Shown here piece by piece: positions 752 to 19,200 of a DNA stretch of 24,410 nt (position 1 is its first letter; each line of letters begins with the position of its first letter). The DNA is from a virus, in IMG/VR virus record IMGVR_UViG_3300023176_001598, positions 1-24,410 of that record; one strand, 5' to 3'. A program made the translations under genes and the position numbers. A model generated the notes under the pieces. It searched no databases and was not told where the DNA came from. It worked only from the letters and a program-made list of their open reading frames with translations.

Positions 752-802
752 GCGCGCATCTTGAATATTTATTGTACAATCAAATACGAGGAACATTTAT
801 AA

Positions 803-1990
803 ATGAATAACGAATCTAAAAATATAGATATCGAACTCAAAGATGAGGGCGGTAAAGTAGAAGCAGTATTCAGCTTATTCAACTCTATAGATTCTGATGG
901 AGATGTAGTAATGCCTGGAGCTGTAAAATCCGGTTTTAAAAATAATCAAGTACCTATGGTTTGGTCTCATAAATGGGATATGCCTATCGGAAAAGGTACA
1001 ATTGACCAAGATGACGACAAAGCAGTTTTTAAGGGTGAGTTTTTTATGGACACTGAATCTGGTAGAGAAGCTTATAACCTAGTTAAAAACATGGGCGATA
1101 TGCAACAATGGTCATTCGGCTATAAAGTAAATGATTCTGAGTATGCAAAAGCCAAAGACAAAGAAGGCGAAGATACTAATGCTAGATATCTAAAAGACCT
1201 TACTGTTTATGAAGTTTCTCCAGTACTAGTTGGAGCTAATCAAGACACATACACATTAGCAATTAAATCTAATACTGAGTTATTAAAAGAAATTGCAGAT
1301 GTTAAAGGTGATGATAAAGAAGAACAATCATCTGGATGTGGTGCAAATTGTGGTTGCAGTCAAAAAAGTTACGGAGATGATGAAGATGAAATGAAAGGTT
1401 GTAAGTATCACGATGGTGGTCCTTGCATGAAGATGGAAGAGGATAAAAAAGAAATGAAAAGTGAAGAAGATTTAGAAGTTTCACAGGAAGACAGCAAGTC
1501 TTTCTCTGAAGAAGTCAAAGATGTGCTTGCCGCATTGGATGACTTAGTAGCCCGAGCAAAAGCTATTTCTATGCTCCGTGGTGAAGATGGTAGGAAATTA
1601 GGCGTTAAAGCCACTGAAGCACTTCGTGCAGTCGCAGACGACTTGAACGATGCTTGGACCGAGATTGATGAGTTCATCGGAAATGTCGGAACCGAGGGTG
1701 CTTTAGAGTTAGAAGTAGATGAAGAACTTGTGGAAGATGAACTAGCTGAAACAGAAGAGGTAGCTGAGGCTTCAACTGATACTATTGATGTTGAAACTGA
1801 AGTCGAAGAAGTTACTGAGGAAGAAGCACCAGCAGAGGAACCTGCTGTTGAAGAACCGGAAGATGAAGCTGCTGAAGAAGAAACTCCAGAAGATAACACT
1901 GATTCCTCTGACGAAGAATTTGATGCTGAGTGGGTAAGGGCACAGGAATTAATTGCTGAGTCCTTAATAGAAGAAATAGAAGAAGTATAA
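803..1990 (+). CDS. Prohead (HK97-family) maturation protease with cysteine cluster and acidic C-terminal extension
   Basis: Serine protease that cleaves scaffold parts from the capsid protein inside the procapsid. The first 160 residues match the HK97 prohead protease family (S78/U35): FNSIDSDGDVVMPGA, the catalytic-His region MVWSHKWDMPIGKG (His56), the catalytic-Ser region QQWSFGY (Ser104), and YEVSPVLVGAN (Glu137 as likely third member). His56/Ser104 correspond well to His65/Ser114 of HK97 gp4. The protein is 395 residues, about twice the usual length. The extension has a cysteine cluster (C179, C183, C185, C200, C208, with H203), a helical segment at 235-300 whose DNA is visibly more GC-rich, and a highly acidic Glu/Pro/Ala/Thr tail at 300-395. 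The tail could act as a scaffold or cargo domain; this is inference. Start ATG follows GAGGAAC at good spacing. It is directly followed by the capsid gene. Confidence 0.85.
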   Translation: MNNESKNIDIELKDEGGKVEAVFSLFNSIDSDGDVVMPGAVKSGFKNNQVPMVWSHKWDMPIGKGTIDQDDDKAVFKGEFFMDTESGREAYNLVKNMGDMQQWSFGYKVNDSEYAKAKDKEGEDTNARYLKDLTVYEVSPVLVGANQDTYTLAIKSNTELLKEIADVKGDDKEEQSSGCGANCGCSQKSYGDDEDEMKGCKYHDGGPCMKMEEDKKEMKSEEDLEVSQEDSKSFSEEVKDVLAALDDLVARAKAISMLRGEDGRKLGVKATEALRAVADDLNDAWTEIDEFIGNVGTEGALELEVDEELVEDELAETEEVAEASTDTIDVETEVEEVTEEEAPAEEPAVEEPEDEAAEEETPEDNTDSSDEEFDAEWVRAQELIAESLIEEIEEV

Positions 1991-2017
1991 GCAATTATAG
2001 ATTGGAGAAATCTAAGA

Positions 2018-3259
2018 ATGAGTAATCAAAACGAACTCATGGACAAAATTGCTGCTAAAAGAGCAGAATTAAAATCTGTTTTTGAATCCGCTGAAGACGG
2101 CAAGTACTCCGCTGAACAAAAAGAGGAAATAAAGTCAAGAAATGACGAACTTGCTGAATTAGTAGAAGACCTTTCCATTGAGAAGAAAAAACTTCAAAAT
2201 GAGAAAGCTCTTGATGAAGATTCAAAGCCAGTTGCAGAAATGCCACTAGCTTCAAACGAAGCAGAAGTTAAAACTGTTGGGCAGCTCTTTACAGAGTCCG
2301 ATGCTTACAAAAATTATGTAAGCGGTGGAGTTAAAGGTATTGACTCAAAAATTGAGACAAAAACAACTTTAACTACCACAGGTTATCCACCAGAGGTCTT
2401 AAGACAACCTGGAATTTTGGAAACCGCTCTTAGGGACCCAAACGCTGTTATATCATTATTTGATGTAATCAACACAGACCAAAATGCATTCAGCTATTTG
2501 GAAGAAACAACCTTCACAAATAACGCAGCTGAAGCAGCAGAAGGTTCTGCAGTTGGTGAAGCAGCTTTGGCTTTCACAGAGCAAACAGAAGCAATCCGTA
2601 AAATGGGTATTTTCATCCCAGTTACAGATGAATTATTAGCAGATGAATCTGGTATTCAAGGTTACTTGAACAGCAGACTTCAAACAATGATTCGTTTAAG
2701 ATTGGACAGCCAACTCCTTAGTGGTGATGGTACTGCTCCAAACCTTGAAGGTATCTTAGATGCTGGTAAAGCTTCAGTCGGTTCTACTGACTTTAGCTCT
2801 TACGCTGGTACACTCGGAAAAATTGGTGCTATTTATGGTGCTATTACCGACATCAGAGTAAACGCTTTCACTGAGCCAGACGCAATCATCATGCATCCAA
2901 ATGACTGGAATGACATTGTCACATCAGTTGGTGCTGATTTTGCAGGAACTTCATCCGCTGGATATACAGAAAAGTCACCACTTTTCGTAGCAGCAGGTGG
3001 AATGGGCGCTGGTCCTTCAGCTCAAATCTGGGGACTAAAAGTCGTTCCTACAACCGCAATTGCCGCAGGAACAGTTCTTGTTGGTAAATTCGGTGGCGGT
3101 GAAGCAGCTAATGTTGTAATGAGACAAGGTATCGAACTTGCTGTAACTGACAGCCATTCTGATTTCTTTATTAAGAATCAATTGGCCATCAGAGCTACAA
3201 TGAGAGTCGGTTTCCCTGTTTACAGAGAAGCAGCTTTCCATAAACTAACAAATATGTAA
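2018..3259 (+). CDS. Major capsid protein, HK97 fold
   Basis: Shell subunit of the icosahedral head. Residues 1-65 form a charged coiled coil (ELMDKIAAKRAELKSVFE and similar heptads), the delta/scaffold domain that the protease is expected to remove; residues 70-115 are a linker. The mature part carries family hallmarks: TTLTTTGYPPEVLRQPGI, NAFSYLEET, GIFIPVTDELLADE, SRLQTMIRLRLDSQLLSGDGT-type sequence followed by NLEGIL, and MHPNDWNDIVTS, ending RVGFPVYREAAFHKL. Length 413 is typical of HK97-like precursors. The start ATG is preceded by TTGGAGAAATC, a good Shine-Dalgarno. Codons are somewhat richer in C-ending forms than those of the neighbouring genes, as expected for a highly expressed gene. 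A strong terminator follows. The delta domain suggests that no separate scaffold gene is needed. Confidence 0.93.
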   Translation: MSNQNELMDKIAAKRAELKSVFESAEDGKYSAEQKEEIKSRNDELAELVEDLSIEKKKLQNEKALDEDSKPVAEMPLASNEAEVKTVGQLFTESDAYKNYVSGGVKGIDSKIETKTTLTTTGYPPEVLRQPGILETALRDPNAVISLFDVINTDQNAFSYLEETTFTNNAAEAAEGSAVGEAALAFTEQTEAIRKMGIFIPVTDELLADESGIQGYLNSRLQTMIRLRLDSQLLSGDGTAPNLEGILDAGKASVGSTDFSSYAGTLGKIGAIYGAITDIRVNAFTEPDAIIMHPNDWNDIVTSVGADFAGTSSAGYTEKSPLFVAAGGMGAGPSAQIWGLKVVPTTAIAAGTVLVGKFGGGEAANVVMRQGIELAVTDSHSDFFIKNQLAIRATMRVGFPVYREAAFHKLTNM

Positions 3260-3280
3260 TATTCGTTAGTAAACGATTTG

Positions 3281-3315
3281 AAGAGAGCCGGGTAAAACCG
3301 GCTTTCTTCTTTTTA
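3281..3315 (+). terminator. Rho-independent terminator after the capsid gene
   Basis: AAGAGAGCCGG (3281-3291), a six-base loop GTAAAA, and CCGGCTTTCTT (3298-3308) form an 11-bp stem with one G-U pair, followed by CTTTTTA. It lies 22 bases after the capsid stop codon and would cap the protease-capsid transcript or attenuate read-through into the neck genes. Confidence 0.8.
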
Positions 3316-3320
3316 TAGAG

Positions 3321-3326
3321 TAAAAT
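3321..3326 (+). promoter_or_regulatory. Possible -10 element for a near-leaderless mRNA
   Basis: TAAAAT just after the terminator ends 9 bases before the ATG at 3336. The following gene has no Shine-Dalgarno sequence, and transcription restarting here would give an mRNA with a leader of 0-3 bases. No clear -35 box. In AT-rich DNA such hexamers arise by chance, so support comes only from the same arrangement at two other genes. Confidence 0.3.
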
Positions 3327-3335
3327 GATTTTATT

Positions 3336-3596
3336 ATGTCAGATATATTTAAACCAGAGAAGACAATTTGGAAAATGAAGGACGGTTCGTTCTTCGAAGG
3401 CTCACTAGCAGAACTACCTAAATCTGGTGCTTCTAAAATTGCGCAAGCAGGAAAAGAAGTATCTAAGGAATGGTTAAAAGAGCAAGGTTGGAAAGATGCT
3501 TCTGAAAAGAAAGCTCCAGCTAAAAAAGATGCTCCTAAGAAAAAAGCTGCTAAAAAAGTCGAAACCAAAGCTGTCAAACCATCCGAAGATAAATAA
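3336..3596 (+). CDS. Small lysine/alanine-rich protein of unknown function
   Basis: An 86-residue protein with two parts. Residues 1-55 look folded, with MSDIFKPEKTIWKMKDGSFFEG and helix-prone EVSKEWLKEQGW. Residues 56-86 are a histone-like basic tail of KKAPAKKDAPKKKAAKK type. Small proteins of this kind are often found between capsid and connector genes; possible roles are a DNA-binding or packaging accessory, or head-decoration protein, but no family is recognised. There is no Shine-Dalgarno before the ATG, an ATG 8 bases upstream is out of frame, and the gene begins just after the terminator. The long minus-strand ORF opposite it is a shadow. Confidence 0.65.
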   Translation: MSDIFKPEKTIWKMKDGSFFEGSLAELPKSGASKIAQAGKEVSKEWLKEQGWKDASEKKAPAKKDAPKKKAAKKVETKAVKPSEDK

Positions 3597-3607
3597 AGGA
3601 GTCCTAA

Positions 3608-4252
3608 ATGGCTCTTTGTAGCGTTAGTGATGTAGAGCAATTCCTGCAGATAGATTTAAACTCTACTGTAGAAGCTTCCGTCACAAATACTTTTATACCC
3701 TATGTTGATGCTGCTATTAAGCGTTATTTAGGTCATGATGTTGAACAAGCAACTTATACAGAAACTTTTGATGGCAATGAACAACAAGATATATTTTTAA
3801 GACATGTTCCAATTGCTTCTATTACATCTGTTACTGAAGATGGTAATACACTTACACAAGGTAATGAAAACGATTATGTTTACTATGACAACGGAAGACT
3901 TAGAAGAATCGGTATTCGTTGGTCCGGTATTAAATTCAAAAATATATCTGTAACTTATGTTGGTGGATACCAATCTGCTGACATTCCAGAACAAATAAAA
4001 TTTAGTTCAGCTAGAGCATCTGCAAGATTGTTAATGACATCATTGCAGATATCAGCAAAATCAGATACAGGTGAAGTCTCATCTCACTTAGCAGATAACA
4101 CCTCTGTCACAAATTTTGATGTTGCTTTAACTGAAAGAATAGGTGATTATGATGTTGCATTTGGAGATGTAATTGTACAAAACTTAACACCTGTTCTTAC
4201 TAATGCAGAGATGATGATGCTTCAACCTTTTAGAAGCAGATTCTTTGTATAA
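3608..4252 (+). CDS. Head-tail adaptor/connector (gp6-like)
   Basis: Likely the ring protein docking under the portal. The N-terminus MALCSVSDVEQFLQIDLNST plus a following helix with IKRYLGHDVE is the usual start of gp6/adaptor proteins (a short helix over an acidic-hydrophobic patch, then a helix ending near a beta section). The central part has TETFDGNEQQDIFLRHVPI, SITSVTEDG and FKNISVTYVGGY, the beta-strand pattern and GY ending commonly seen in this family, and then a long helix (EQIKFSSARASARLLMTSL). At 214 residues it is longer than HK97 gp6. The start follows AAGGAG with 6-base spacing. Position after the capsid gene supports the call. In most relatives the head-closure gene follows immediately; here three unrelated genes intervene. 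Confidence 0.7.
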   Translation: MALCSVSDVEQFLQIDLNSTVEASVTNTFIPYVDAAIKRYLGHDVEQATYTETFDGNEQQDIFLRHVPIASITSVTEDGNTLTQGNENDYVYYDNGRLRRIGIRWSGIKFKNISVTYVGGYQSADIPEQIKFSSARASARLLMTSLQISAKSDTGEVSSHLADNTSVTNFDVALTERIGDYDVAFGDVIVQNLTPVLTNAEMMMLQPFRSRFFV

Positions 4253-4270
4253 TTAAATAAAAGGGAAGAT

Positions 4271-4909
4271 ATGGTACACAGAAAAGCTCCATCTTTGGAG
4301 GAAGCAACTGAATTATTTGCACAAGACCCCGATAAGATGCTGCAAGAATGGGCAGACGAATGGGGTGTTACTCATGAAAGAGTTCGTCAACTAAGAATAC
4401 AATCTGGTGTTCCTCAACGCGGTGCCTACAGTGAAGAAGTAGCAGAAGCTATATTAGATATTATAAGAAGTGGTAGAGGTGGCCTTACAACTCCTAGAAC
4501 TTACGAAGAACAACCTATTGGTTATGAAAGATTTTCAACCTGGATTGAAGAAGAAGAAGGTTTAGCTGAAAAAGTTATTGAAGCACAAAAGCAAGCTTCT
4601 AAAATGCTTACTGACCCTATAGAAAAAGAGTGTAGATATTGTCGTGAATGGAAACCAGTAGAAGATTTTAAAAGAACACAAAAATACCAAGATGGTTATA
4701 CCAAGTTTTGTGAAGTATGTTTAATACATTTAAAAGAGAATGCACCAGAAGAAGGTGAAAGATTAAAGAATTGTATATCTTGTAAATCAGAAAAATCAGT
4801 TAAAGAATTTTCAACAAATCCAAATTCAGCTGACGGTTTAAAATTGTTTTGTAAAGAGTGTCATAAAAAACAAAAAAGAAAGATTAGAAGAAGAAATGCC
4901 AAGATATGA
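4271..4909 (+). CDS. HTH protein with two tandem CxxC-CxxC zinc knuckles
   Basis: A 212-residue probable DNA- or RNA-binding protein. Residues 24-50 (LQEWADEWGVTHERVRQLR) form a helix-turn-helix similar to sigma-factor region 4 type recognition helices. Two duplicated zinc modules follow: C121/C124...C147/C150 and C168/C171...C194/C197. Both follow CxxC-(x4)-K-x-V-x2-F...DG...FCxxC, with an identical 22 residues between the inner cysteines of each module, so they arose by duplication. This layout is common in phage endonuclease VII-like and HNH proteins, but no HNH or catalytic histidine is visible. The C-terminus is very basic (KKQKRKIRRR). The start ATG follows AAGGGAAGAT. Its 3' end overlaps the FmdB-like gene. 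A regulator is more likely than a structural protein; the exact role is unknown. Confidence 0.6.
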   Translation: MVHRKAPSLEEATELFAQDPDKMLQEWADEWGVTHERVRQLRIQSGVPQRGAYSEEVAEAILDIIRSGRGGLTTPRTYEEQPIGYERFSTWIEEEEGLAEKVIEAQKQASKMLTDPIEKECRYCREWKPVEDFKRTQKYQDGYTKFCEVCLIHLKENAPEEGERLKNCISCKSEKSVKEFSTNPNSADGLKLFCKECHKKQKRKIRRRNAKI

Positions 4910-5135
4910 TTATAAATGTTTATCTTGTAAAAGAAATTATGAGATAACACACAAAATTAGTGAAGACCCAGAAATACTGTGTCCTAAAGATAATGTCGTT
5001 TGTAAAAGACAGATATCTAAGAATGTTATGTTTGAGACACCTATAGATGTAGATTGGGAAAAGAACCCTAAAGATTTATCTGAAAAATCATTTAGACAAT
5101 ATGAAAAAGCAAAGAAACAAAAATTTAGATGGTAG
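4896..5135 (+). CDS. FmdB-like zinc-ribbon protein
   Basis: 79 residues beginning MPRYDYKCLSCKRNYEI, which matches the FmdB-family putative regulatory proteins (MPxYxYxCxxC then an aromatic-Glu pair). The first cysteine pair is C8/C11; the second is C29 and C36, separated by six residues instead of the canonical CxxC, so metal binding may be altered. Residues 45-79 are a charged tail (EKSFRQYEKAKKQKFRW). It starts inside the previous gene (14-base overlap) and ends overlapping the next start by 7 bases, so the three genes are probably co-translated. FmdB relatives occur in bacteria and phages with no settled function; transcriptional regulation is only suggested by name. Confidence 0.65.
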   Translation: MPRYDYKCLSCKRNYEITHKISEDPEILCPKDNVVCKRQISKNVMFETPIDVDWEKNPKDLSEKSFRQYEKAKKQKFRW

Positions 5136-6298
5136 TTGACAATGGAATGGAAGAAGTACAATCTGGAAAAGGTAGATACTTCTTATTTTTTGATAGTTAT
5201 TCAATAAATAGAGACCCTGTTAATCATAAATCTCAAATAGTTTATTTAATTGTTCCTATAAAAGAATTAATATTCGATAAGCCAGGAATGAAACAAGATA
5301 TACCTATACATCCAGAATGTAAAATAATTGATTTAGATGATTTAGCAAAAAAAGAATTACAAGATGCTATTAAAGAACAACGAGGTGAAGAAGGAACACT
5401 GCATTTAAAAACACAGGGTATAACTATATTTACTGAAAATGCACAAATAGATGAAAATAAAATAACTTTAATGTTTAAAGACACAACAACAGAAGGAATT
5501 GTTGATGGTGCAAATTTATACAATGTTATTAAAAATCTTCGCATTGAAGATATTCCAAAAAAAAGTTATGTAAGAATTGTTGTATATATAAACAGTAACA
5601 AAGAACTATCAGACGAAATAGTTAATGGTTTGTCTAAAACACTACATAAAAAATCTAACGACATAGACATATCAGAAATTGAATGGATTAATGATGTATT
5701 AAAAGATACAGAATACAAAGATATGGATATGCTTACAGTTTTATCTTATATAAATTTATTTAGAAACAATTATGATGCTGATGTTCATAATCAACCAACA
5801 ATATCATACTCAAATAAAGAAAGAGTATTTGAACTGTACAGAGATAATCCAGAGTCATTTATTAAATACAAAAATATTGTTAAAGACATACTTTATTTAC
5901 ATGATTATATACAATATAAATCACAAGAAGTTTGGCCATCTAAACAGGGTAGTATTGGAAGTCTTGGTATAACTTATATTTACAAGCAAAAAGGTTATGA
6001 GTTTCCAATGATAAGTAAAAAAGCTGATTATAAATTACACGAGTCAGTAATTTGTATTCTTCTTGCTGCGTTAAGGAATTTTGTGATATTCAACTCTGAC
6101 GCTAAAGCAATATGGTCAAAAGATTTTTCCAAAATACTTAATTTATATGAATTAATTCTTCCAGACCTTATAACTATAATAAAAGATTTTAACGCACAAA
6201 TAGGTAACAATCCCCACTTACTTGGAAAAAACAGTTTGCTATATAGCAATATTTATAAAGAAGTTTTGATGGGTGATATGTTAAACCAATTTTTATAA
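5129..6298 (+). CDS. AIPR-like protein (abortive infection/phage resistance family)
   Basis: 389 residues, visibly more AT-rich than its neighbours. The pattern matches the AIPR superfamily: LHLKTQGITIF (91-101, the FHLKNxGIT element), TEGIVDGANLYNVI (121-134, the hGIVDGGHTxxxI element), then YVRIVVYINSNKEL, EIVNGLSKTLHKKSNDIDIS (the IAxxxNxSxxV element), and later ISYSNKERVFELY with ILYLHDYIQ. In the signature, the usual Gly-His-Thr is Gly-Ala-Asn here, so activity may be lost or changed. The family is named after plasmid abortive-infection proteins and its biochemical activity is not established to my knowledge. Start ATG at 5129 overlaps the previous gene; ATG 5147 is an alternative. No good Shine-Dalgarno. 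The gene separates the adaptor from the head-closure gene, so it is probably cargo, perhaps for superinfection exclusion or host control (inference). Confidence 0.6.
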   Translation: MVVDNGMEEVQSGKGRYFLFFDSYSINRDPVNHKSQIVYLIVPIKELIFDKPGMKQDIPIHPECKIIDLDDLAKKELQDAIKEQRGEEGTLHLKTQGITIFTENAQIDENKITLMFKDTTTEGIVDGANLYNVIKNLRIEDIPKKSYVRIVVYINSNKELSDEIVNGLSKTLHKKSNDIDISEIEWINDVLKDTEYKDMDMLTVLSYINLFRNNYDADVHNQPTISYSNKERVFELYRDNPESFIKYKNIVKDILYLHDYIQYKSQEVWPSKQGSIGSLGITYIYKQKGYEFPMISKKADYKLHESVICILLAALRNFVIFNSDAKAIWSKDFSKILNLYELILPDLITIIKDFNAQIGNNPHLLGKNSLLYSNIYKEVLMGDMLNQFL

Positions 6299-6308
6299 AT
6301 TCTTATTG

Positions 6309-6314
6309 TAAAAT
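6309..6314 (+). promoter_or_regulatory. Possible -10 element for a leaderless mRNA
   Basis: TAAAAT ends exactly 6 bases before the ATG at 6321, so the predicted first transcribed base is the A of the start codon. The gene has no Shine-Dalgarno. No convincing -35. It would re-initiate neck-gene transcription after the inserted accessory genes. Confidence 0.3.
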
Positions 6315-6320
6315 ACAAAC

Positions 6321-6656
6321 ATGCCTGTTAGAGATAGATTATATTCAGAGACCTGTTCAATTCAAAGAGTATCAGATACTACTGTAGATGAGAGAGGGTT
6401 GCCTAGTGATAATTGGGCAAACTCTTCTACTGATGTAAAAGCTAAATTTGAATCACAAGGTGCAGAAGAAGACAGAGATGGAAGAAATACTACTGTCGAA
6501 ACATTTATTGTATATATTGAAAGTGGAGTTGATGTTGTCCCGGGAGATAGATTAGTTAGAGGTTCTACATATCACGAAATTGCAATTGTAAGACCAGTAT
6601 TAGATAGATACGGTAACGAATCATATAAAGCTCTCACTACTTTAGTATATAGTTAG
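6321..6656 (+). CDS. Head closure / head-tail joining protein
   Basis: 111 residues with the profile of phage head-tail joining (stopper) proteins: MPVRDRLYSETCSIQRVSD strand, a proline/tryptophan loop (ERGLPSDNWANSS), VKAKFESQGAEED, then TTVETFIVYIESGVDVVPGDRLVRGS with the typical VxPGDRL turn, and YHEIAIVRPV. Length agrees with the family (about 100-120). It docks on the adaptor ring and closes the head after packaging. There is no Shine-Dalgarno, and a -10-like hexamer lies just upstream. It is followed after two bases by the gp10-like gene. Confidence 0.75.
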   Translation: MPVRDRLYSETCSIQRVSDTTVDERGLPSDNWANSSTDVKAKFESQGAEEDRDGRNTTVETFIVYIESGVDVVPGDRLVRGSTYHEIAIVRPVLDRYGNESYKALTTLVYS

Positions 6657-6658
6657 CC

Positions 6659-8485
6659 ATGGCCGAAAATAAGGTTAAAGTAAAAGGAGCAGGCGCTGCT
6701 TCTAAAACTAAAGTTAATAAGAGAATTGGTAGATGGCAAACTAAAATATATAAAGGCCTCAGTGTTCTTGGTGATATTAATGCAGTAGCGCAAAGTCAAA
6801 GAATAAATAAAATGCGTAAAGTAGGTTATCCTATTGCTCGTGCTACTAATACAGCTAAAGCAGGTTTTACAGGAAGATTTAAAGGTGCAGCTGGATTATC
6901 TGCTAGAGGTGCTTCTCTTGCAACTGGTTATATAACTGGTAAAGCAGTACAGTCAGTTGTTCCACAATTTTTAGGACCTGTATTAGGCCGTTTTGCTCGT
7001 AAAGAAGTTGCTGGTGCATTAAACAATACAAAATTTATAAGAGGACTGCATAACAAAACAAGAACTGTTATATCTTCAATTATATCTACCAATGGACCTC
7101 AAGTAAATAGTAGATTACAGCGAATGACTATCGGTCAAAAATCACAATATTTGCTTAGTATGATGGAAAATACAATGAGAGCTTATGCGCCAGATGTTTC
7201 CTCTGGCCAATATCTTATTGGCTTTAATGAAGCTACAAATGCCAAATACAGAGCAGAAGAATTAAAAGAAGATGTAATGATGAGAACAACTGGTGAAAAC
7301 TGGTTTGTTGATGGTGGTGGCTATAGAATAAAAAATTCTCCGAGAAGAGATATTTTTGGATTTAGTAAACCAGGACAAGCAAGAGCCTTCTTATTAAAAT
7401 CTATTGAACAAACTCCAATTCATCCTTCAAAAACGAGAGATGCTTTGCTTTATGGAGCTATAGCTGTCGGTGGTTCTCCACATTTTCCTTGGATACATGC
7501 TGTAGAATATGGTGGTAAATTGCCTTATTATACAAGGTCTAATTGGAATGCTAAGAAAGGCAGAAGAGATTATCAACAAGGTAAAGATAAATTAAATGAA
7601 AAATATATTCAACCTTCATTTTTTATCAACAGAGCTGTGGAAACATCAATTAAAATATTTAAAGATGCAGCAAGTATGTCGGTTAAAAAAGATGCTACTG
7701 CTTCAACTAGAAGATACAGCAAATGGAAAGCATTAGCAAAAAAACGAGGTGGTATTGATAAAATTGCTAAAAGTGAACAATCCTTTATGCCATCTTCTAA
7801 AAAAGCAAGTGCTATAACTCAACAATACAGACTTGATAAAGCTGCTAGAGGTTCTGTAATGCTATCAAAAATGGAGTCTAAAATACCTGGAGTTGTTGTT
7901 AATAATGCACACGGCAACTTTTACTCTCCAGAATTAGCCAAAGCCATAGGAGTTAAATTAGTACCAGAAGAAATTAACTTTACGATTACTGTTCCTAATA
8001 GTGCGAATTACAGCAAAAAGCAATTAAAAGAACTTTCTAGTGAATATATTAAAGGAGGTGGAGATAGGTCTGCTGTACAACCTAAGTTTGATGAAATATT
8101 AACAAGAGGAAGCAATGAGGGTCCTATGGGTAGAACTATAGCAAACTATACAACTGGTGGAGATGACAGGTTTGATGGTGGTAATTTATCTGTTTCTTCA
8201 CAAACATATCATGCATTTAGTTCCGCTTCTAAATTCTCAACTAATATCTCAGATAGAGAAAGATTTAATCAAATACTAGAAAATGTTTACACAATAAGTA
8301 CTAGGAAAAAAGGTGATAGTACTGTTGTAAGACTAACTAAGAAGCGTAGTGATGCAGGTAAAAGTAGAGCACCTAGAAAATCATATTCGAGTGGTGGTAA
8401 TAAAGCTAATAGAAATATGTACAGACTAGCACAAGAATTAGTATCTGGAATAGATATTAACGAAATAGATGACCTCTTGTCTTAA
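6659..8485 (+). CDS. HK97 gp10-like neck protein with unusually long extensions
   Basis: 608 basic residues where gp10-type neck proteins usually have 110-160. The middle carries the family signature around residues 270-330: a helix-rich segment, FPWIHAVEYGGKLPYYT (the YAxxVEYG element) and IQPSFFINRAVETSIKIF (the PxPFLxxAxE element). The N-terminal 130 residues are Lys/Arg/Gly/Ala-rich, with a possible amphipathic glycine-rich stretch (LATGYITGKAVQSVVPQFLG). The C-terminal 240 residues contain alternating charged helices, an HGNFYSPELAKAIGVKLVPEEI segment-like strand pattern, and a basic RKKGDSTVVRLTKKRSD region; I recognise no enzyme motif. Its position between head closure and tail terminator fits gp10. 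Start ATG follows the previous stop by two bases with no Shine-Dalgarno. Confidence 0.6.
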   Translation: MAENKVKVKGAGAASKTKVNKRIGRWQTKIYKGLSVLGDINAVAQSQRINKMRKVGYPIARATNTAKAGFTGRFKGAAGLSARGASLATGYITGKAVQSVVPQFLGPVLGRFARKEVAGALNNTKFIRGLHNKTRTVISSIISTNGPQVNSRLQRMTIGQKSQYLLSMMENTMRAYAPDVSSGQYLIGFNEATNAKYRAEELKEDVMMRTTGENWFVDGGGYRIKNSPRRDIFGFSKPGQARAFLLKSIEQTPIHPSKTRDALLYGAIAVGGSPHFPWIHAVEYGGKLPYYTRSNWNAKKGRRDYQQGKDKLNEKYIQPSFFINRAVETSIKIFKDAASMSVKKDATASTRRYSKWKALAKKRGGIDKIAKSEQSFMPSSKKASAITQQYRLDKAARGSVMLSKMESKIPGVVVNNAHGNFYSPELAKAIGVKLVPEEINFTITVPNSANYSKKQLKELSSEYIKGGGDRSAVQPKFDEILTRGSNEGPMGRTIANYTTGGDDRFDGGNLSVSSQTYHAFSSASKFSTNISDRERFNQILENVYTISTRKKGDSTVVRLTKKRSDAGKSRAPRKSYSSGGNKANRNMYRLAQELVSGIDINEIDDLLS

Positions 8486-8495
8486 TATTTAGATG

Positions 8496-8501
8496 TATAA
8501 T
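8496..8501 (+). promoter_or_regulatory. Possible -10 element before the tail terminator gene
   Basis: A perfect TATAAT ends 8 bases before the ATG at 8510, which has no Shine-Dalgarno. TTGTCT upstream is only 13 bases away, too close for a normal -35. Predicted mRNA leader is 0-2 bases. Confidence 0.33.
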
Positions 8502-8509
8502 AAATCATC

Positions 8510-9004
8510 ATGGGTATAAAAGCAACAGGCTCTCAGCCAGACCAAGCACAGAAGTTTGCACCAGATGCGGAAATAATATTTCGTGAGTGGGCTGTAAATA
8601 ATGCAGATATTACTGATGTTTGTAGCACTAGAGTAGCAACAAGATTACCTCGTAATGCGACATTACCTTTCTTAACATTTTTTTCTAATGGTGGGACTAT
8701 GATGACACCACGAAGCGAAGCATTTATATCATCAGTTGCTTTACAAGTTAATGCTTTTGCTGGTAAATGGGGTGGTGGTTCATCATCTCAACCAGATTAT
8801 GCTACAGCTTTACAGTTAGCAAATGGAGTAGCAGAAGCTGCATTAAAGACTGGAACAACTCGTGTTGTTACTCCAACTAGTGCAACAGCTGCTGTTATAT
8901 ACAGTTTTGAAGTAGTTGAATTACCAATCCGAGTGGAAGAGACTGAAACCGGTTTGGGACATTATCAGCTATCATTAATAATGAATTATCGAGGACTAGA
9001 TTGA
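8510..9004 (+). CDS. Tail terminator protein (lambda gpU / DUF3168-like)
   Basis: 164 residues. After a helix (DAEIIFREWAVNNADITDVC) comes RVATRLPRNATLPFLTFFSNGG, the typical P-x-LPFLTF strand of tail terminator proteins, then FISSVALQVNAFAG (the strand equivalent to LQIDxxA), a helix DYATALQLANGVAEAALK, and two final strands with GHYQLSLIMNYRG. These elements and the slot directly before the tail tube gene fit a ring protein that stops tail tube polymerisation and joins tail to neck. The start lacks a Shine-Dalgarno. Similar neck proteins (tail completion) have the same fold, so the subtype is uncertain. Confidence 0.65.
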   Translation: MGIKATGSQPDQAQKFAPDAEIIFREWAVNNADITDVCSTRVATRLPRNATLPFLTFFSNGGTMMTPRSEAFISSVALQVNAFAGKWGGGSSSQPDYATALQLANGVAEAALKTGTTRVVTPTSATAAVIYSFEVVELPIRVEETETGLGHYQLSLIMNYRGLD

Positions 9005-9005
9005 T

Positions 9006-9281
9006 ATGAAGAAGATAAAAGTTAAAATTAATCCTTTGTTGCTAGAGAAGACAACTGTTCGAGATACCGTAACAGGAACAGTCTTTAGTCACAAGGGGTG
9101 GGCTGAGATAGACATGGCCGTCTGGGAGCGCCTTAAAGAAGCTACATATAAACAGGGAACACAAAAAATTTCTGTTTTAATAGCTGATATTGAGGAAGAA
9201 CTAGACGACTCTCCATCAGAGGACGACAAGGAATCTGTTGAAGAGGTAGTGGAAGACTTCTTTATTGCTGAAGAAGAATAA
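9006..9281 (+). CDS. Small protein of unknown function with acidic tail
   Basis: 91 residues, start ATG one base after the previous stop, with GAGGA in the end of the preceding gene as ribosome binding site. The N-terminal 60 residues look beta-rich: MKKIKVKINPLLLEKTTVRD, GTVFSHKGWAEIDMAVWERL. The rest is strongly acidic (EEELDDSPSEDDKESVEEVVEDF). Parts of the DNA (around 9100-9135 and 9205-9230) use GC-rich codons unlike the neighbours. Small acidic proteins at this point between tail terminator and tube have no agreed function; no family recognised. Confidence 0.6.
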   Translation: MKKIKVKINPLLLEKTTVRDTVTGTVFSHKGWAEIDMAVWERLKEATYKQGTQKISVLIADIEEELDDSPSEDDKESVEEVVEDFFIAEEE

Positions 9282-9288
9282 CCGGCAA

Positions 9289-9326
9289 AGCTGAAATCGA
9301 CTTGAAAAAGTCGGCTGAGCTCAGCT
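9289..9326 (+). promoter_or_regulatory. Nested hairpins before the tail tube gene
   Basis: In the 82-base gap before the tail tube gene, CGACTT (9298-9303), GAAA loop, AAGTCG (9308-9313) form a perfect 6-bp stem with a GNRA loop. AGCTGA (9289-9294) can pair with TCAGCT (9321-9326) around it, while GCTGAGCTCAGC (9314-9325) is a 12-bp perfect palindrome. No U-tract follows, so it is not an ordinary terminator. It could be an RNA regulatory or processing element, or a dimeric protein site. Confidence 0.45.
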
Positions 9327-9328
9327 GA

Positions 9329-9346
9329 TAAGTATAAGTATAAGAT
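9329..9346 (+). promoter_or_regulatory. AGTATAA repeat, possible late-promoter element
   Basis: TAAGTATAAGTATAAGATA contains two overlapping AAGTATAAG units between the hairpin and the Shine-Dalgarno TTAGGAG of the tail tube gene. The same AGTATAA core is doubled upstream of the protease gene (727-751). No clear -35. These are the two longest intergenic gaps before highly expressed structural genes. Confidence 0.3.
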
Positions 9347-9363
9347 ATGTTAGGAGATAACAA

Positions 9364-10047
9364 ATGAGCTTTAATACAACAGGAACAATATCTGAAGTAT
9401 TAATAGGTACAGGTGTTCTCTATTATGCAGATAGAACTACAAGTTCTTTAGTATTCCCAGCCGATAACAGCGGCGCATGGGAAAACCCTACAACACTCTC
9501 AGTTCCATTCTCAGAAGTTGGTTATTCTGAAGATGGCTGGACTTTAGAAGTTGATAAAACTTTTGAAGATGTTATGGTTGCTGAAGAAGTAGACCCTATC
9601 AAGACTCTTAAGTCAGCACAAGAAGTAAGACTAACTGGTGAACTATCACAAGCTGGTATTGACAAACTACAAATCGCAATGGGTGGAGGTGTTAAAGCAG
9701 AAGATACAATTGCTGCAATAACAACTCAAACATCTGGTGATAGCGATTATGTAGATGGATATGATTCATATATTCCACCATTGTCAGATACTTTCACAGA
9801 ATATGCGATGGTATTACACACAGATGGTCCAGCAGGTGCGGACAGACAGTTCCACATTCCTAGAGCAGTGAATGTCGGTTCTTTCGCAATGAGTCACCAA
9901 AAGGCTCCAGCAAAAGTTAGTTTGGCAACAGAATTTAAACTTCTCGTTCCAGATTCAACTTTAAATGTTGGTAGCTCTGGCGGTGCATACTACTTGTTCA
10001 GAGTAATAGATAACACTAACGATACTGACGAGTTAGATATTAACTAA
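9364..10047 (+). CDS. Major tail tube protein
   Basis: 227-residue building block of the tail tube. It starts MSFNTTGTISEVLIGTGVLYYA, a common opening of siphophage tube proteins, followed by SVPFSEVGYSEDGWTLEVDK (the GxTxDGxxxxxxxxxxxI strand region), TFEDVMVAEEVDPIKTLK and EVRLTGELSQAG, the strands that build the inner beta barrel, and ends with PAKVSLATEFKLLVPDST, the conserved strand near the C-terminus. TTAGGAG lies 8 bases before the ATG. It has C-ending codons and a clean ribosome site, as expected for high expression, and lies directly before the chaperone pair and tape measure. Confidence 0.85.
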   Translation: MSFNTTGTISEVLIGTGVLYYADRTTSSLVFPADNSGAWENPTTLSVPFSEVGYSEDGWTLEVDKTFEDVMVAEEVDPIKTLKSAQEVRLTGELSQAGIDKLQIAMGGGVKAEDTIAAITTQTSGDSDYVDGYDSYIPPLSDTFTEYAMVLHTDGPAGADRQFHIPRAVNVGSFAMSHQKAPAKVSLATEFKLLVPDSTLNVGSSGGAYYLFRVIDNTNDTDELDIN

Positions 10048-10071
10048 AATAATTAGATTGGAGAATATAAA

Positions 10072-10416
10072 GTGGTAAAGTTTAAAGACTTTGACGAGGC
10101 TCTCGAAGCCGACAAAAAAGAAGAGTTGCAGATTAAAGTAGCTGGAAAGACATATAAATTGCCAGCTACTTTACCTGCACGAGCAGTACTTCAACAAATG
10201 AGAATTGCTGAAGATGGAGCAGAAGTTCCTTTTGAAGCTGTTCCTCAATGGATTGCATCATTAGTAGGACAAGACAAACTAGAAGAAATGCTAGAAAACG
10301 GAATGTCTTGGGAACAGATGAATGATTTGTTGAATTGGTTGATGGAAGCTTACGGGCTAACACTTCCACAAGAATCTGCAGAAGGTACTGAAGGGGACGA
10401 AGACTCCCCAAAATAA
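10072..10416 (+). CDS. Tail assembly chaperone, short form (gpG-like)
   Basis: 114 residues starting at GTG 10072 after TTGGAGAAT, a good Shine-Dalgarno. It lies between tail tube and tape measure, where gpG-type chaperones bind the tape measure during tail assembly. The sequence is FKDFDEALEADKKEELQIKVAGKTYKLP-like: an N-terminal strand pair, helices with LQQMRIAEDG and WIASLVGQDKLEEMLENGMSWEQM, then an acidic linker EGTEGDEDSPK. The gene ends with TCC CCA AAA TAA, a slippery heptamer placed right at the stop codon, so part of the ribosomes should shift into the next ORF and make a 223-residue G-T fusion. Confidence 0.8.
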   Translation: MVKFKDFDEALEADKKEELQIKVAGKTYKLPATLPARAVLQQMRIAEDGAEVPFEAVPQWIASLVGQDKLEEMLENGMSWEQMNDLLNWLMEAYGLTLPQESAEGTEGDEDSPK

Positions 10417-14940: not shown

Positions 14941-16202
14941 TGACTAATACACATCAAGTAACAATAGGCCATTTAAGTTTTACCTCTCCAGGTTCTTTAT
15001 CTTATAATTCTAGTGGTAGCGGTAGAAGTTATTCACTTAGTGGTATTCTTGCCCATACAGATTCATCTGGTATAGATGTAGATGAAAATAAATATATTAG
15101 AGATGAGCTAATGTCAATGGCTGCGTACGATTTAGTATATCCATTTTCATACACAGGTGATACTACAATGTCTGGATATGTAAAAGTAGAATCTGCCGAT
15201 GTAAGTATTTCTAGATTTGCTGGTGCAGGTATGAATTATAATGTAAGTTTACAATGGTTAGGTAATCCAGGTGAAGTCAGATTTGAATCACAATTTTCTG
15301 GTGCTCTTATAGATAATGACCACAGTGTAACAAGTACTGATTCTCAATTTTTTACATCTCCGGCTGGAGCATTTTCTATGGACATACCTTCTGTAGGTAC
15401 AGGTTCACCACCAGACCAAGAAGATAGAATAGCATCTTATGGAGACTCGACAGTTACATTAAAATATTTTAGCGGTTCAAATTTAAGAAACAATAATATA
15501 GAATTTGAATGTAACCCAGTAGATTATTTAAAAGGTGCTGTAAAAGTTTCTACAAATGGAAAAGTTAGAAACGGTCTTTATAGTCCAAACACGAATGTAG
15601 ACCAAGTAGTTTTAGAAAATGGTTTAGTTAAATTTGAATTAACAAATAGTAATACTGAATCTAGATTTACAACATCATTGTGGGAAAACGATGATTGGAG
15701 AAGTCCTAAAGAGTATGCTGTATCTAAAGGAAGTTCACAAACTGAATGGGATGGATGGAATACTGTACAGATAATTAAAAATTATCCAGAATGTGCAACA
15801 TTAAGATTTACTTCGCAAGCAAATACTGATGGCAGTGGTAGGTTGACATTTGATGTATCTCTTAGAAGAGGAGCAAGATATTTTAGTCTTGTTGTATCTT
15901 CTTATGGTACAGCTGATGAAATAAGAATAGAGAGAACTACTACAGAGGCAGCTACAGCAGGAACTGGTTACATAACCTCTTCTACTAATGACTCTGAAGG
16001 TAATTTTTATATTCTTGGTTCACCAAACACCTTTAGTTCTAATACAACTGATGGTGGAATTTACCTTACTGCTACACAGATGAAAGCATTTGTCGGATAT
16101 GTTCTTGACGGTACTTCAGCTGCTGGACAAAATACTGCAGAGAATATGAGAGATTCATATCTTGATTTTGTTTATGAGCATGTAAGGTCAATTAAGTCAT
16201 GA
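14940..16202 (+). CDS. Distal tail (Dit-like) minor tail protein
   Basis: Protein of the tail tip, 420 residues with the start at ATG 14940. ATG 14934 also is in frame, but 14940 gives the TAATG overlap and a 9-base spacing to AAAGGA, against 3 bases for 14934. It begins MTNTHQVTIGHLSFTSPG; after an 80-residue beta-rich section (YVKVESADVSISRFAGAGMN, VSLQWLGNPGEVRFES) comes a second large beta domain with SLWENDDWRSPKEY, FDVSLRRGARYFSLVVSSYG. The first section resembles Dit proteins, with their ring domain at the N-terminus; the remainder could be a galectin/carbohydrate-binding module as in evolved Dits. Its end overlaps the next start by ATGA. Assignment rests on position between tape measure and tip protein and on the beta pattern. 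Confidence 0.6.
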   Translation: MTNTHQVTIGHLSFTSPGSLSYNSSGSGRSYSLSGILAHTDSSGIDVDENKYIRDELMSMAAYDLVYPFSYTGDTTMSGYVKVESADVSISRFAGAGMNYNVSLQWLGNPGEVRFESQFSGALIDNDHSVTSTDSQFFTSPAGAFSMDIPSVGTGSPPDQEDRIASYGDSTVTLKYFSGSNLRNNNIEFECNPVDYLKGAVKVSTNGKVRNGLYSPNTNVDQVVLENGLVKFELTNSNTESRFTTSLWENDDWRSPKEYAVSKGSSQTEWDGWNTVQIIKNYPECATLRFTSQANTDGSGRLTFDVSLRRGARYFSLVVSSYGTADEIRIERTTTEAATAGTGYITSSTNDSEGNFYILGSPNTFSSNTTDGGIYLTATQMKAFVGYVLDGTSAAGQNTAENMRDSYLDFVYEHVRSIKS

Positions 16203-19200
16203 GTGTAAATGAAAAATTAATGGCTCCAGGCACATTTAGTGTCAATTTAAATTTAGAGCAAACACCTAACTCAATAGTAAACAAAATAGTACCTTGGGGA
16301 AACATTGTACTTACACCAACACGAGTACAAGCAGAAGAATTTACAGATGCTCAACTTCGTGATATGGCTAGGTATGTAGGTATTGTTACCGCTCAAGAAA
16401 TATCAGAAGAAGGAATAGAAATATCTGGAAAAGGTATTTTGGCCTATTTAGGAGATAGCGATTCTAGAGGTATGGTACTTGCAAGAAATGCAGGAACAGG
16501 TGCTGTTAGAAGTTTTAATAGAGATACTTTAGATGATGTAATTGATAGAAGTAGTTCTACACCTTATGGTATTTTAAGAGATGAAAGTGCTAATCAGAGA
16601 GCAGTAAGAAAAGGTACAGTAACAGAAGTTTCTTTTGACAATACAGTACTGCTTTTAAATTATGAAGGTAATGATGGTGATACTACAACATCAGATGGTT
16701 CAGAATTTACATCTAATCAAGTAATAACATTTACCGGAACATCAGATATCTCAAGTGAGCAAGCTAAGTTCGGTAATACAAGTCTTAACTTGACTACTGA
16801 CGGTTTTGTTACAGTTGCTGATAGACCAGAATTAGATTTAACTTATCAAGAGTTTACAGTTGAATGGTGGGAATATAGAACATCATCTAGTGGTAATCCT
16901 ACTGTATGGGCTAGAAACAATGACACATATGCACCTTGGATATTTGGTAAAGCTGTTTCTGGTAGAAATAAAGCATTTATTACACATGACGGACAAGGAT
17001 ATGGAACTGATGAAGATTTAAATATAGATATGGGTTCTATTGATTTAAACCAATGGAATCACTTTGCAATATCACATAAAGGCGATTTTTTTAGAACTTA
17101 TAAAAATGGTGTACAGATAGCTGAAGTAAAAAGGCCAGAATTATTTGTTAGAGTTAGTTCTGATTCTTTACAAATTGGAAAAGGACAAGACGGAAACTTC
17201 TTTGAAGGTTATCTTGATGGAATGGTAATAACTAGAGGGACAGCAAAGTATTGGGACGCATTCACTCCTAGTACATCAGCTCCTACAGCTACTACAGCTA
17301 ACAAAACTTATACTGGTAAACATTACTTAGAATCTGCATATAGGTCAATTAAAACTATTTGTACAGCTCTTGATGCAGAATTTAAAATGCAAAACGATGG
17401 AACTATTGATGTAGGACCTAGAAGTGCATTGTTTACTGGACACGAAGATAGTACACCAGAGGGAATGATTGTAAGAAGATTATCTGGTTCTGACCCAAAT
17501 ATCAAAGGTTATTCTGGTGTAGATTTAAGTACAGAATTTAATGCTGAAGATTATGTAAGTAGAGTTGAGCTAACTGCTTCACAAGTAGGTTCAACTATTA
17601 ACTTAGGACAAGCAGATGCTAAAGATGTGCCTTATAAAGATTTATTTGGTAACGAATTAGAAAGAATACAGATACTTGCTGAAAATGATATACCAGACAC
17701 TATGCGTGATATCAGAGCAGAAGCTTATTTAAATGAATATAATAAAATACAAAAAACTTTAAATGTAGGATTAGAAGATTACGATATATCTGGAGATATT
17801 GATGTTGGAGATATTATTTATGTCTACGACCCAGATGTAGGTTTTGAAGATACTGCAACAGATGCAGCTTTAGAAAATAGAGATAGATTTGAAATAACAT
17901 ATCAAGGCCAAATATTACATCCTATAAAAATTCGTGTTATGGGATTATCATTCCCTATATCAGATGATATGGGTGTTTTCTATCGTGATAAAGATGGTAA
18001 TTACACAGACTTAACAGATTATGTAGTTTTTGAAACCGGAATAACACAAATAGAAGTTGGTGCAACTACTAAAACAATTAACCAAGATTTGAGAGCAACT
18101 GGTGCAATTATATCTGGAGGTTCTACTAATGAGTTTACCGTTCCAGATGCACCAACAAATTTAGCATCTGCTACAGGAAGCTATCAAGATGGTAGTGGTA
18201 GGCCTTTTGCTTTTGCAAGATTAACTTGGGATGAACCAACTAATACAGATGGTTCAAGAATTACTGACGGAAATATGTATCGTGTTAGATATAGGCAAGT
18301 TACAGATGTTGACGGTAATAATTTAATTGATAGTAATGATAATCAAGTTAGTGATTACGAATATTTAACAGTAGCATTTGGAACACAAGCTGTAGTTATA
18401 AAAGGTTTAGGTCCTAGTAATACATATGAGTTTGGTGTTCAAGCGATAGACAACTCTGGTTTTTCTGGTGGGTATTCTATATTAACTGCAGTGCAGATGC
18501 CTGTTGATGCAACTGTTCCTCCTGCACCTGTAGCACCTACAGGAACTTATGGAGCAATAGCTTCTAATGCAGCACAAATTCAAATATCTCATAAATTAGC
18601 AGCTGCTGAAGATGCAGATGGTAATCCAATAGCATCGCCAACAAATTTTACCTTACCTAGAGATATCGACCACCTCAATGTTTACAGAAGTCAAGATTCC
18701 ACTTTTACTCCTAGTGCAAGTACATTTGTTGGAGAGATAGCAGCTAGAGCTGGACACATTGACGGAGAAATAACAGCAATAAATACTTTTATTGTAAGCA
18801 CAGCAGGTACTTGGTATTACAAACTTACAGCAGTTGATGTTGTAGGAAATGAATCAGACCCTTCTACTGCGCAGCAAGCAGAACACGAGCTAATAACAAA
18901 AGAGTATATTGCAGACGCAGAAATTACTACTGTAAAAATTGGAGAAGCACAAGTAACTGACGCAAAGATAGTTGACTTAACTGCTTCTAAGATTACAGCA
19001 GGAACTATTAGCGGTAAAGAAATAATAATTGACACAGATAGCGCTACTGACCCATCTAATCCAGTACTAGGAACAATACGAAGTGATAATTATGTTCAAA
19101 ATACATCTGGTTGGATAATTAAATCTAATGGAGATGTTGAGTTTGATTCTGGTACATTTAGAGGTGACATTACAGGTGCTACTGGAACATTTTCTGGAAG

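What the first reader, a model, noticed from the sequence alone, without database searches (positions are those of the whole stretch)
5129..6298. AIPR-like (abortive-infection family) protein carried in a phage neck operon
Seen: the order LHLKTQGITIF, TEGIVDGANLYNVI, a strand VRIVVYI, a helix ending with KKSNDIDIS and ISYSNKERVFEL follows the AIPR arrangement, with Gly-Ala-Asn in place of the usual Gly-His-Thr. Known: AIPR proteins are named for phage-resistance plasmids. Inference: a phage carrying one between connector genes may use it against competing phages or to control the host; the altered signature may mark a divergent, possibly inactive or retargeted subfamily. This is the best candidate in the window for an undescribed system, together with its two zinc-protein neighbours.
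Basis: partly seen in the sequence, partly recalled or inferred. Interest (0 to 1): 0.8.

Follow-up and report, generated by a model that had tools for sequence, protein, structure and literature searches.

The report
Defence-family protein fixed in marine phages
A protein family normally found beside bacterial anti-virus defences has become a permanent gene of one lineage of uncultured marine phages, in the middle of their virion-assembly operon, so it is probably a phage tool rather than a passing defence cassette.

Summary
The ORF at 5129-6298 (389 aa) is real and is a divergent homologue of the AIPR family (PF10592). The window protein scores no Pfam hit itself. However, all annotated plasmid hits are AIPR proteins. 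Seven of 24 orthologues hit PF10592 (best 8e-10, 39 bits against a 25-bit cut-off). Profile-profile comparison gives 99.3% over 352 columns; an unrelated control gives 0.1%.

The interpretation needs changing. The gene is not an accessory cassette. All 107 loci (49 distinct sequences) holding both neck flanks carry the same HTH/zinc - FmdB - AIPR trio. AIPR usually starts inside the FmdB stop (7-nt overlap, 103 of 112). It evolves under purifying selection, so it is not decaying. The 'Gly-Ala-Asn' is a feature of one sub-clade; the position varies even in canonical AIPRs.

A sister lineage (terminase 67% identical) lacks AIPR but keeps both zinc proteins, so they are not dedicated partners. 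There FmdB and an HNH gene have exchanged places.

Best reading: a bacterial AIPR was acquired once and domesticated as a late, DNA-linked or counter-defence protein, probably with a ParB/Srx-like nucleotide-binding domain. Identity is about 0.95 certain; the mechanism about 0.35.

The parts
3608..4252 (+). head-tail adaptor (Ad1-like), upstream flank of the cassette
   Evidence: phrog_442 4.4e-19
4271..4909 (+). HTH plus double zinc-ribbon protein (212 aa). The zinc part resembles that of endonuclease VII; the PHROGs matches I saw fall in that part. Ancestral: also present in the AIPR-less sister lineage
   Evidence: PHROGs endonuclease VII matches in the zinc region; conserved WGVTHERVRQLRI and CxxC; sister lineage
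4896..5135 (+). FmdB-type zinc ribbon protein (79 aa); lies in the neck only in the AIPR lineage, next to the terminase gene in the sister lineage
   Evidence: Zn_ribbon_8 5.5e-9
5129..5135 (+). ATGGTAG: AIPR start inside the FmdB stop; the 7-nt overlap is conserved in 103 of 112 loci, suggesting translational coupling
5129..6298 (+). AIPR-family protein (389 aa), the finding
5417..5596 (+). signature region (residues 97-156): GITIF, GIVDGANLYNVI, strand; equivalent to the AIPR 'NRGI...DGGHT' region and, by predicted order of elements, to the ParB/Srx motif region
   Evidence: alignment, predicted secondary structure
6321..6656 (+). head-tail adaptor / head closure (Hc1-like), downstream flank
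   Evidence: phrog_615 1.6e-4 and phrog_501 4.9e-4
3280..3309 (+). terminator-like stem-loop behind the capsid gene; no + strand terminator-like site inside the adaptor to head-closure stretch

Best explanation
The gene encodes a genuine but divergent AIPR-family protein. It entered the common ancestor of one marine phage lineage once and has been kept ever since as a core late gene, apparently translated by coupling from the FmdB zinc-ribbon gene in front of it. Most likely mechanism (inferred): the first half is a ParB/sulfiredoxin-like nucleotide-binding domain and the second half a helical domain; late in infection the protein acts as a nucleotide-dependent, DNA-associated factor that shields phage DNA from, or neutralises, a host restriction/modification-type defence. 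That means a defence-island component turned into a phage counter-defence or genome-maintenance protein. Shown by tool results: family membership, fixation, conserved overlap with FmdB, selection, one clade, absence from the sister lineage. Inferred: single acquisition, fold, nucleotide binding, DNA link, target.
For: Homology: with control. One monophyletic phage clade, separate from plasmid and other phage AIPRs (100/100 support). Present in 107 of 107 loci (49 distinct sequences) holding both flanks, and again in 23 of the 25 loci with both flanks found through an independent terminase anchor, many of them on the same contigs. Overlapping start/stop in 103 of 112. Purifying selection, window against L007 dN/dS 0.11. 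Fold: Foldseek against predicted viral proteins gives an AIPR protein (E 5.6e-5), then DNA-sulfur-modification (DndB-like) and ParB/Srx proteins at weak scores; with the better model the best PDB hit is the ParB-type CTPase Noc (E 0.18, not significant), with SspE and PadC also listed. DndB is reported to share its N-terminal domain with AIPR (PMC3506569) and to be a ParB-like ATP/GTP binder (PMC12704722). AIPR genes occur in restriction-modification operons (PMC2292703); here L009 is beside DpnII, Mrr and TIR genes and L010 beside Z1. In Bacillus phage Goe8 an AIPR lies between a tRNA-His guanylyltransferase and a sigma factor, close to RtcB, i.e. near tRNA-repair genes.
Against: No significant match to any solved structure. 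The ParB/Srx arginine (DGQHR) is missing in the AIPRs aligned here and the phage clade also varies the next residues, so nucleotide binding may be weak or lost. No DNA-modification gene was identified in the one relative read across 47 kb (not every ORF was scanned). Location among virion genes fits a virion-linked role equally well. A sister lineage lives without it.
Confidence: 0.4

Rival explanations
1. Anti-phage cargo: the phage uses the AIPR protein for superinfection exclusion or to kill competing phages, as AIPRs are thought to do on plasmids.
For: Family is named and catalogued as abortive infection (PMC3506569, PMC10121019); satellites carry AIPR cassettes (PMC9122126). Alleles are exchanged between near-identical phages: window against L007 is 99% identical in the capsid and adaptor, 80% in AIPR, 98.5% in head closure.
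Against: Fixed, syntenic and coupled inside the late operon rather than variable cargo; no integrase found in nine relatives (contigs may be incomplete); other genes (protease, tail tube) are equally mosaic; acting against later phages would favour early expression.
Confidence: 0.2
2. Virion or assembly protein: AIPR was recruited as a minor head/neck component, ejected protein or packaging helper.
For: Lies between adaptor and head-closure genes in every member; in unrelated phages L078 and L079 canonical AIPRs lie directly upstream of, or one HNH gene away from, the terminase genes; HNH and FmdB genes swap between neck and terminase sites.
Against: Adaptor and head-closure proteins are already accounted for by other genes; the sister lineage builds the same neck with a 110-aa protein and an HNH gene in this slot and no AIPR; no match to any connector or virion protein apart from a weak tail-fibre profile, 0.0016.
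Confidence: 0.2
3. Late-gene regulator: together with the HTH/zinc and FmdB proteins it controls late transcription, as DndB represses its own operon.
For: Neighbour with an HTH motif resembling sigma region 4 (WGVTHERVRQLR); DndB is an ATP-dependent repressor (PMC12704722, PMC4507180); many plasmid AIPR genes have an HTH regulator gene upstream on the other strand.
Against: Both neighbours exist without AIPR in the sister lineage; a 389-aa protein in the middle of the operon it would regulate is unusual; no promoter excess.
Confidence: 0.15
4. Relic under relaxed selection without function.
For: Faster protein divergence than capsid or adaptor (45-52% against 70-90% identity across the clade); signature residues altered.
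Against: dN/dS 0.02-0.13 in close pairs; intact in every contig except two that have frame breaks across many genes.
Confidence: 0.03

Closest known systems
AIPR family (PF10592), e.g. Terribacillus goriensis plasmid pT1 WP_041592334.1 beside a Z1 protein
   Same: Full-length homology (22% identity, 352 aligned columns in the profile comparison), same motif order, C-terminal N-P-x-x-x-G-K motif
   Different: No Z1, MORC, restriction or methylase partner seen; DGGHT replaced by DG(A/S)(N/H/Y/A)(L/I/F); ARNTS motif lost in the window's sub-clade, though kept in part (ARNT) in L121; phage late-operon location
Canonical AIPRs in other phages (IMG/VR L078, L079; Bacillus phage Goe8 QDP42941.1)
   Same: AIPR gene on a phage, not in an obvious defence island; L078 and L079 near the terminase genes
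   Different: Different phages; about 20-22% identity to the window protein (L078, L079); L078 and L079 keep DGGHT
DndB / DGQHR proteins and the ParB-CTPase (ParB/Srx) fold
   Same: Weak structural similarity, same order of predicted elements and a DG motif before a helix
   Different: No significant sequence or PDB match; lacks the QHR part of the motif
Neck slot of the sister phage lineage (L214, L219)
   Same: Adaptor, HTH/zinc protein and head closure in the same order
   Different: HNH endonuclease plus 110-aa protein instead of FmdB plus AIPR

Membership tests
AIPR (PF10592) | Score above the Pfam gathering cut-off (25 bits) | tested here: inconclusive
   The window protein has no hit. 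Orthologues at the same locus reach 39.3 and 38.0 bits; 7 of 24 orthologues match at E <= 0.1
AIPR (PF10592) | Homology along the family's whole length, to the exclusion of other families | tested here: met
   hhalign 99.3%, 352 columns; all annotated plasmid tblastn hits are AIPR; control 0.1%
AIPR (PF10592) | DG-x-H-T signature | tested here: inconclusive
   DG invariant; the following residues vary in the phage clade and in canonical L080 (DGATT), so the full motif does not define the family
AIPR (PF10592) | Neighbourhood with restriction-modification, MORC or Z1 genes | tested here: not met
   Neighbours are virion and zinc-ribbon genes. This is a contextual trait seen in many members, not a sequence criterion of the family
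AIPR (PF10592) | Phage resistance activity | not testable with these tools
   Needs expression and plaque tests
ParB/Srx (ParB-CTPase) fold | Significant structural match | tested here: inconclusive
   Noc E 0.18, PadC E 1.8, SspE E 0.62 in PDB; DndB-like and ParB/Srx proteins at E 0.06-2 in BFVD
ParB/Srx (ParB-CTPase) fold | G-x-x-R / DGQHR nucleotide-phosphate motif | tested here: not met
   DGANL in the window; no Arg in the phage clade or in the canonical AIPRs aligned
Phage connector / virion protein | Profile or fold match to a known connector | tested here: not met
   No PHROGs connector hit (only tail-fibre profile 0.0016), no PDB hit
Accessory moron / defence cargo | Patchy presence, own promoter and terminator, variable location | tested here: not met
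   107 of 107 loci, fixed site, overlapping start/stop, no terminator-like site on the + strand inside the stretch

The most novel reading that the evidence does not exclude
A defence-island protein family has been domesticated as a fixed core gene of a widespread marine phage lineage, where it works as a late nucleotide-switched DNA protein that turns a host restriction or phosphorothioate-type defence against itself (a phage-owned AIPR counter-defence), gained together with a reciprocal exchange of HNH and FmdB genes between the terminase and neck sites.
Probability: 0.2. Interest if true: 0.75.

Novelty: new variant of a known kind. Interest (0 to 1): 0.5.

Why it matters
AIPR proteins have been catalogued with abortive infection and restriction-modification systems for years, yet the papers found here give no established biochemical role. 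A phage lineage that keeps one as an invariant core gene gives a version without restriction-modification neighbours to study. It also shows that the presence of an 'abortive infection' family gene does not by itself mean a defence system: automatic defence annotation of phages can mislead. The clean gain or loss between two sister lineages gives a natural comparison for asking what the gene does.

Tried and rejected
Direct profile scans (Pfam, NCBIfam, PADLOC) of the window protein gave nothing; only orthologues and profile-profile comparison showed the family. The weak phrog_25848 'tail fiber' hit (0.0016) was not reproduced by the orthologues tested and was discarded. Genome-contig scans for bacterial or prophage copies of the phage clade found none, so there is no host link that way. 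Host inference from WhiB: one relative (G001) carries a WhiB gene (1.7e-25) but eight others do not, so a marine actinobacterial host is only a lead. Allele exchange at AIPR looked special at first, but other genes in the same phages are equally mosaic. The idea that the two zinc genes are AIPR partners was dropped after the sister lineage was found. First structure model (pLDDT 73.8) gave no PDB support; adding canonical AIPRs raised it to 80.7 but the PDB matches stayed non-significant. Family-wide AIPR sampling from bacterial genomes was not possible with the handles available. No paper naming AIPR in a phage neck operon was found among those searched.

Full report
What was checked. The window is a 24.4-kb uncultured virus record with head protease, capsid, adaptor, head-closure, tail and fibre genes in order.

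Is it AIPR? But tblastn against plasmids returns 8 records. The 7 that are annotated at the match are all 'AIPR family protein', the best at E 2e-7 over 94% of the query. The only phage-collection hit (MT838632, L009) encodes an ORF with PF10592 at 1.3e-26, beside DpnII, Mrr and TIR genes. Relatives of the window phage supplied an alignment of 24 orthologues down to 45% identity. Seven of them match PF10592, up to 39.3 bits against a cut-off of 25. Profile-profile comparison with plasmid AIPRs gives 99.3%, E 2.6e-20 over 352 columns; the phage's own capsid family as a control gives 0.1%. Foldseek of the model against predicted viral proteins includes an AIPR protein at 5.6e-5. The homology is therefore established, though the window protein alone stays below curated cut-offs.

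The altered signature. Within the phage clade, Asp-Gly is invariant and the next three residues are ANL in one sub-clade and SHI, SYI or SAF in the other. The deep branch L206 has GNL, and the canonical AIPR L080 has ATT. The ARNT motif of canonical AIPRs survives in L121 but not in the window's sub-clade. So Gly-Ala-Asn is a lineage feature of a variable position, not evidence of inactivation. dN/dS is 0.11 between window and L007 and 0.02-0.13 in other close pairs. Saturation of synonymous sites makes wider comparisons unreliable.

Core gene, not cargo. In all 107 loci that hold both the adaptor and the head-closure gene, the trio HTH/zinc - FmdB - AIPR lies between them. Many loci are overlapping pieces of the same contigs: they reduce to 49 distinct sequences and 38 distinct AIPR proteins. 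In 103 of 112 the AIPR start overlaps the FmdB stop by seven bases (ATGGTAG in the window), as in translational coupling. Those loci were found through the adaptor, the head-closure protein or AIPR itself. An independent anchor, the terminase, gave 80 loci, of which 25 held both flanks: 23 with the trio (many on contigs already seen) and two without AIPR.

The sister lineage. The two exceptions, L214 and L219, belong to phages whose terminase is 67% identical. Their neck reads adaptor - HTH/zinc - HNH - 110-aa protein - head closure. Their FmdB gene (in L219 62% identical to the window's) lies directly upstream of the terminase gene. In the AIPR lineage it is the HNH gene (48% identical) that lies upstream of the terminase, in all 61 loci where either gene could be seen; in the sister lineage it is FmdB in 10 of 10. 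HNH and FmdB have thus exchanged places and AIPR occupies the slot of the 110-aa protein. No AIPR is found elsewhere in the 24-kb and 38-kb sister contigs. More distant phages (L077, MW202444) have no cassette. Two conclusions follow. The simplest history is one gain (or loss) of AIPR between sister lineages, followed by fixation. The two zinc proteins do not depend on it, so 'AIPR plus two zinc proteins' is not a dedicated system.

Evolution within the lineage. The phage AIPRs form one clade apart from plasmid and other phage AIPRs (100/100; long branches, so the exact root is unsure). Between otherwise near-identical phages the AIPR allele has been exchanged: 80% DNA identity in AIPR against 99.6% in the capsid and 98.5% in head closure. 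The protease, tail-tube and other genes are mosaic too, so this is not special to AIPR.

How it may work. The better AlphaFold model (pLDDT 80.7) predicts strand - helix - strands - strand before DG - helix - strand in residues 36-154, then a largely helical second half. This order and the DG before a helix are what ParB/Srx proteins show (general knowledge; for the motif, PMC4619093). Foldseek lists Noc, SspE and PadC in PDB and DndB-like and ParB/Srx proteins among viral models, none significant. [quoted passage not shown] I therefore consider a ParB/Srx-like nucleotide-binding domain the most likely fold, with the caveat that the phosphate-contacting Arg is absent. AIPR genes travel with restriction-modification genes (PMC2292703), and in phage Goe8 one lies near tRNA-repair genes. 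My preferred function is a DNA-linked counter-defence or genome-protection role late in infection. Exclusion of other phages, a virion role and late regulation remain open.

Host and lifestyle. One relative (G001) carries a WhiB gene (1.7e-25), described as specific to Actinobacteria and found in their phages. Together with 35% GC this fits the low-GC marine Actinomarinales described in PMC7771536 and PMC3861242, but eight other relatives show none. No integrase was detected in nine relatives; all contigs may be incomplete.

Verdict. Observation confirmed; interpretation partly supported; a new variant of a known family whose novelty lies in its fixation as a phage core gene.

Noticed in passing
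L214:10942-12706 and L219:11603-13378, compared with window 4271-6656 and L131:8711-10328: HNH and FmdB genes have exchanged places between the terminase site and the neck site in two sister phage lineages, with AIPR in place of a 110-aa protein; clean in 61 and 10 loci at the terminase site.
   Followed up: yes
L009 (MT838632.1): A GenBank 'Bacteriophage sp.' clone from human faeces looks like a bacterial defence-island fragment (methylase end, Mrr, DpnII, TIR, AIPR with a frame break), not a phage.
   Followed up: partly
L139:3055-7803 (Bacillus phage Goe8): An AIPR gene lies between a tRNA-His guanylyltransferase and a sigma factor, with RtcB three genes further on; a possible counter-defence neighbourhood.
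   Followed up: partly
L078:5322-8491 and L079:4378-9227: Canonical phage AIPR genes sit just upstream of the terminase genes (with an HNH gene between in L078), behind a small regulator-like gene, in two Firmicutes-type phages (assignment from sequence reading only).
   Followed up: partly
L018:3767-4800, L037:7298-8331, L108:5001-6007: In part of the lineage an extra protein of about 260 residues (open stretch 255-264; ...CPAIVDIMTEG[FY]V[IV]PMW...) is inserted between the HTH/zinc gene and FmdB; unknown function.
   Followed up: no
window 16199-20860: 1553-aa tail-tip/fibre protein with lectin-like and fn3 domains and a C-terminal S74 chaperone; a CxxC...CxxC stretch (CNTCNHPVDEGVTECSTC) lies inside the matched S74 region.
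   Followed up: partly
window 800-10100 against L003, L007, L008: Fine mosaicism between nearly identical phages: blocks of 99-100% identity alternate with blocks of 67-85% in the protease, AIPR, head-closure/608-aa and tail-tube genes.
   Followed up: partly
L130:62-358 (-), L131:2505-3404 (-), L131:7700-8008 (-): One relative carries WhiB, an IrrE/ArdC-like protein and a small SET-domain protein, leads to an actinobacterial host and anti-restriction functions.
   Followed up: partly
IMG/VR 3300046170_000155 (L126) and 3300050343_000137 (L124): Both 56-kb contigs show frame breaks in several genes (protease or HTH/zinc, capsid, AIPR), suggesting sequencing errors rather than pseudogenes.
   Followed up: no
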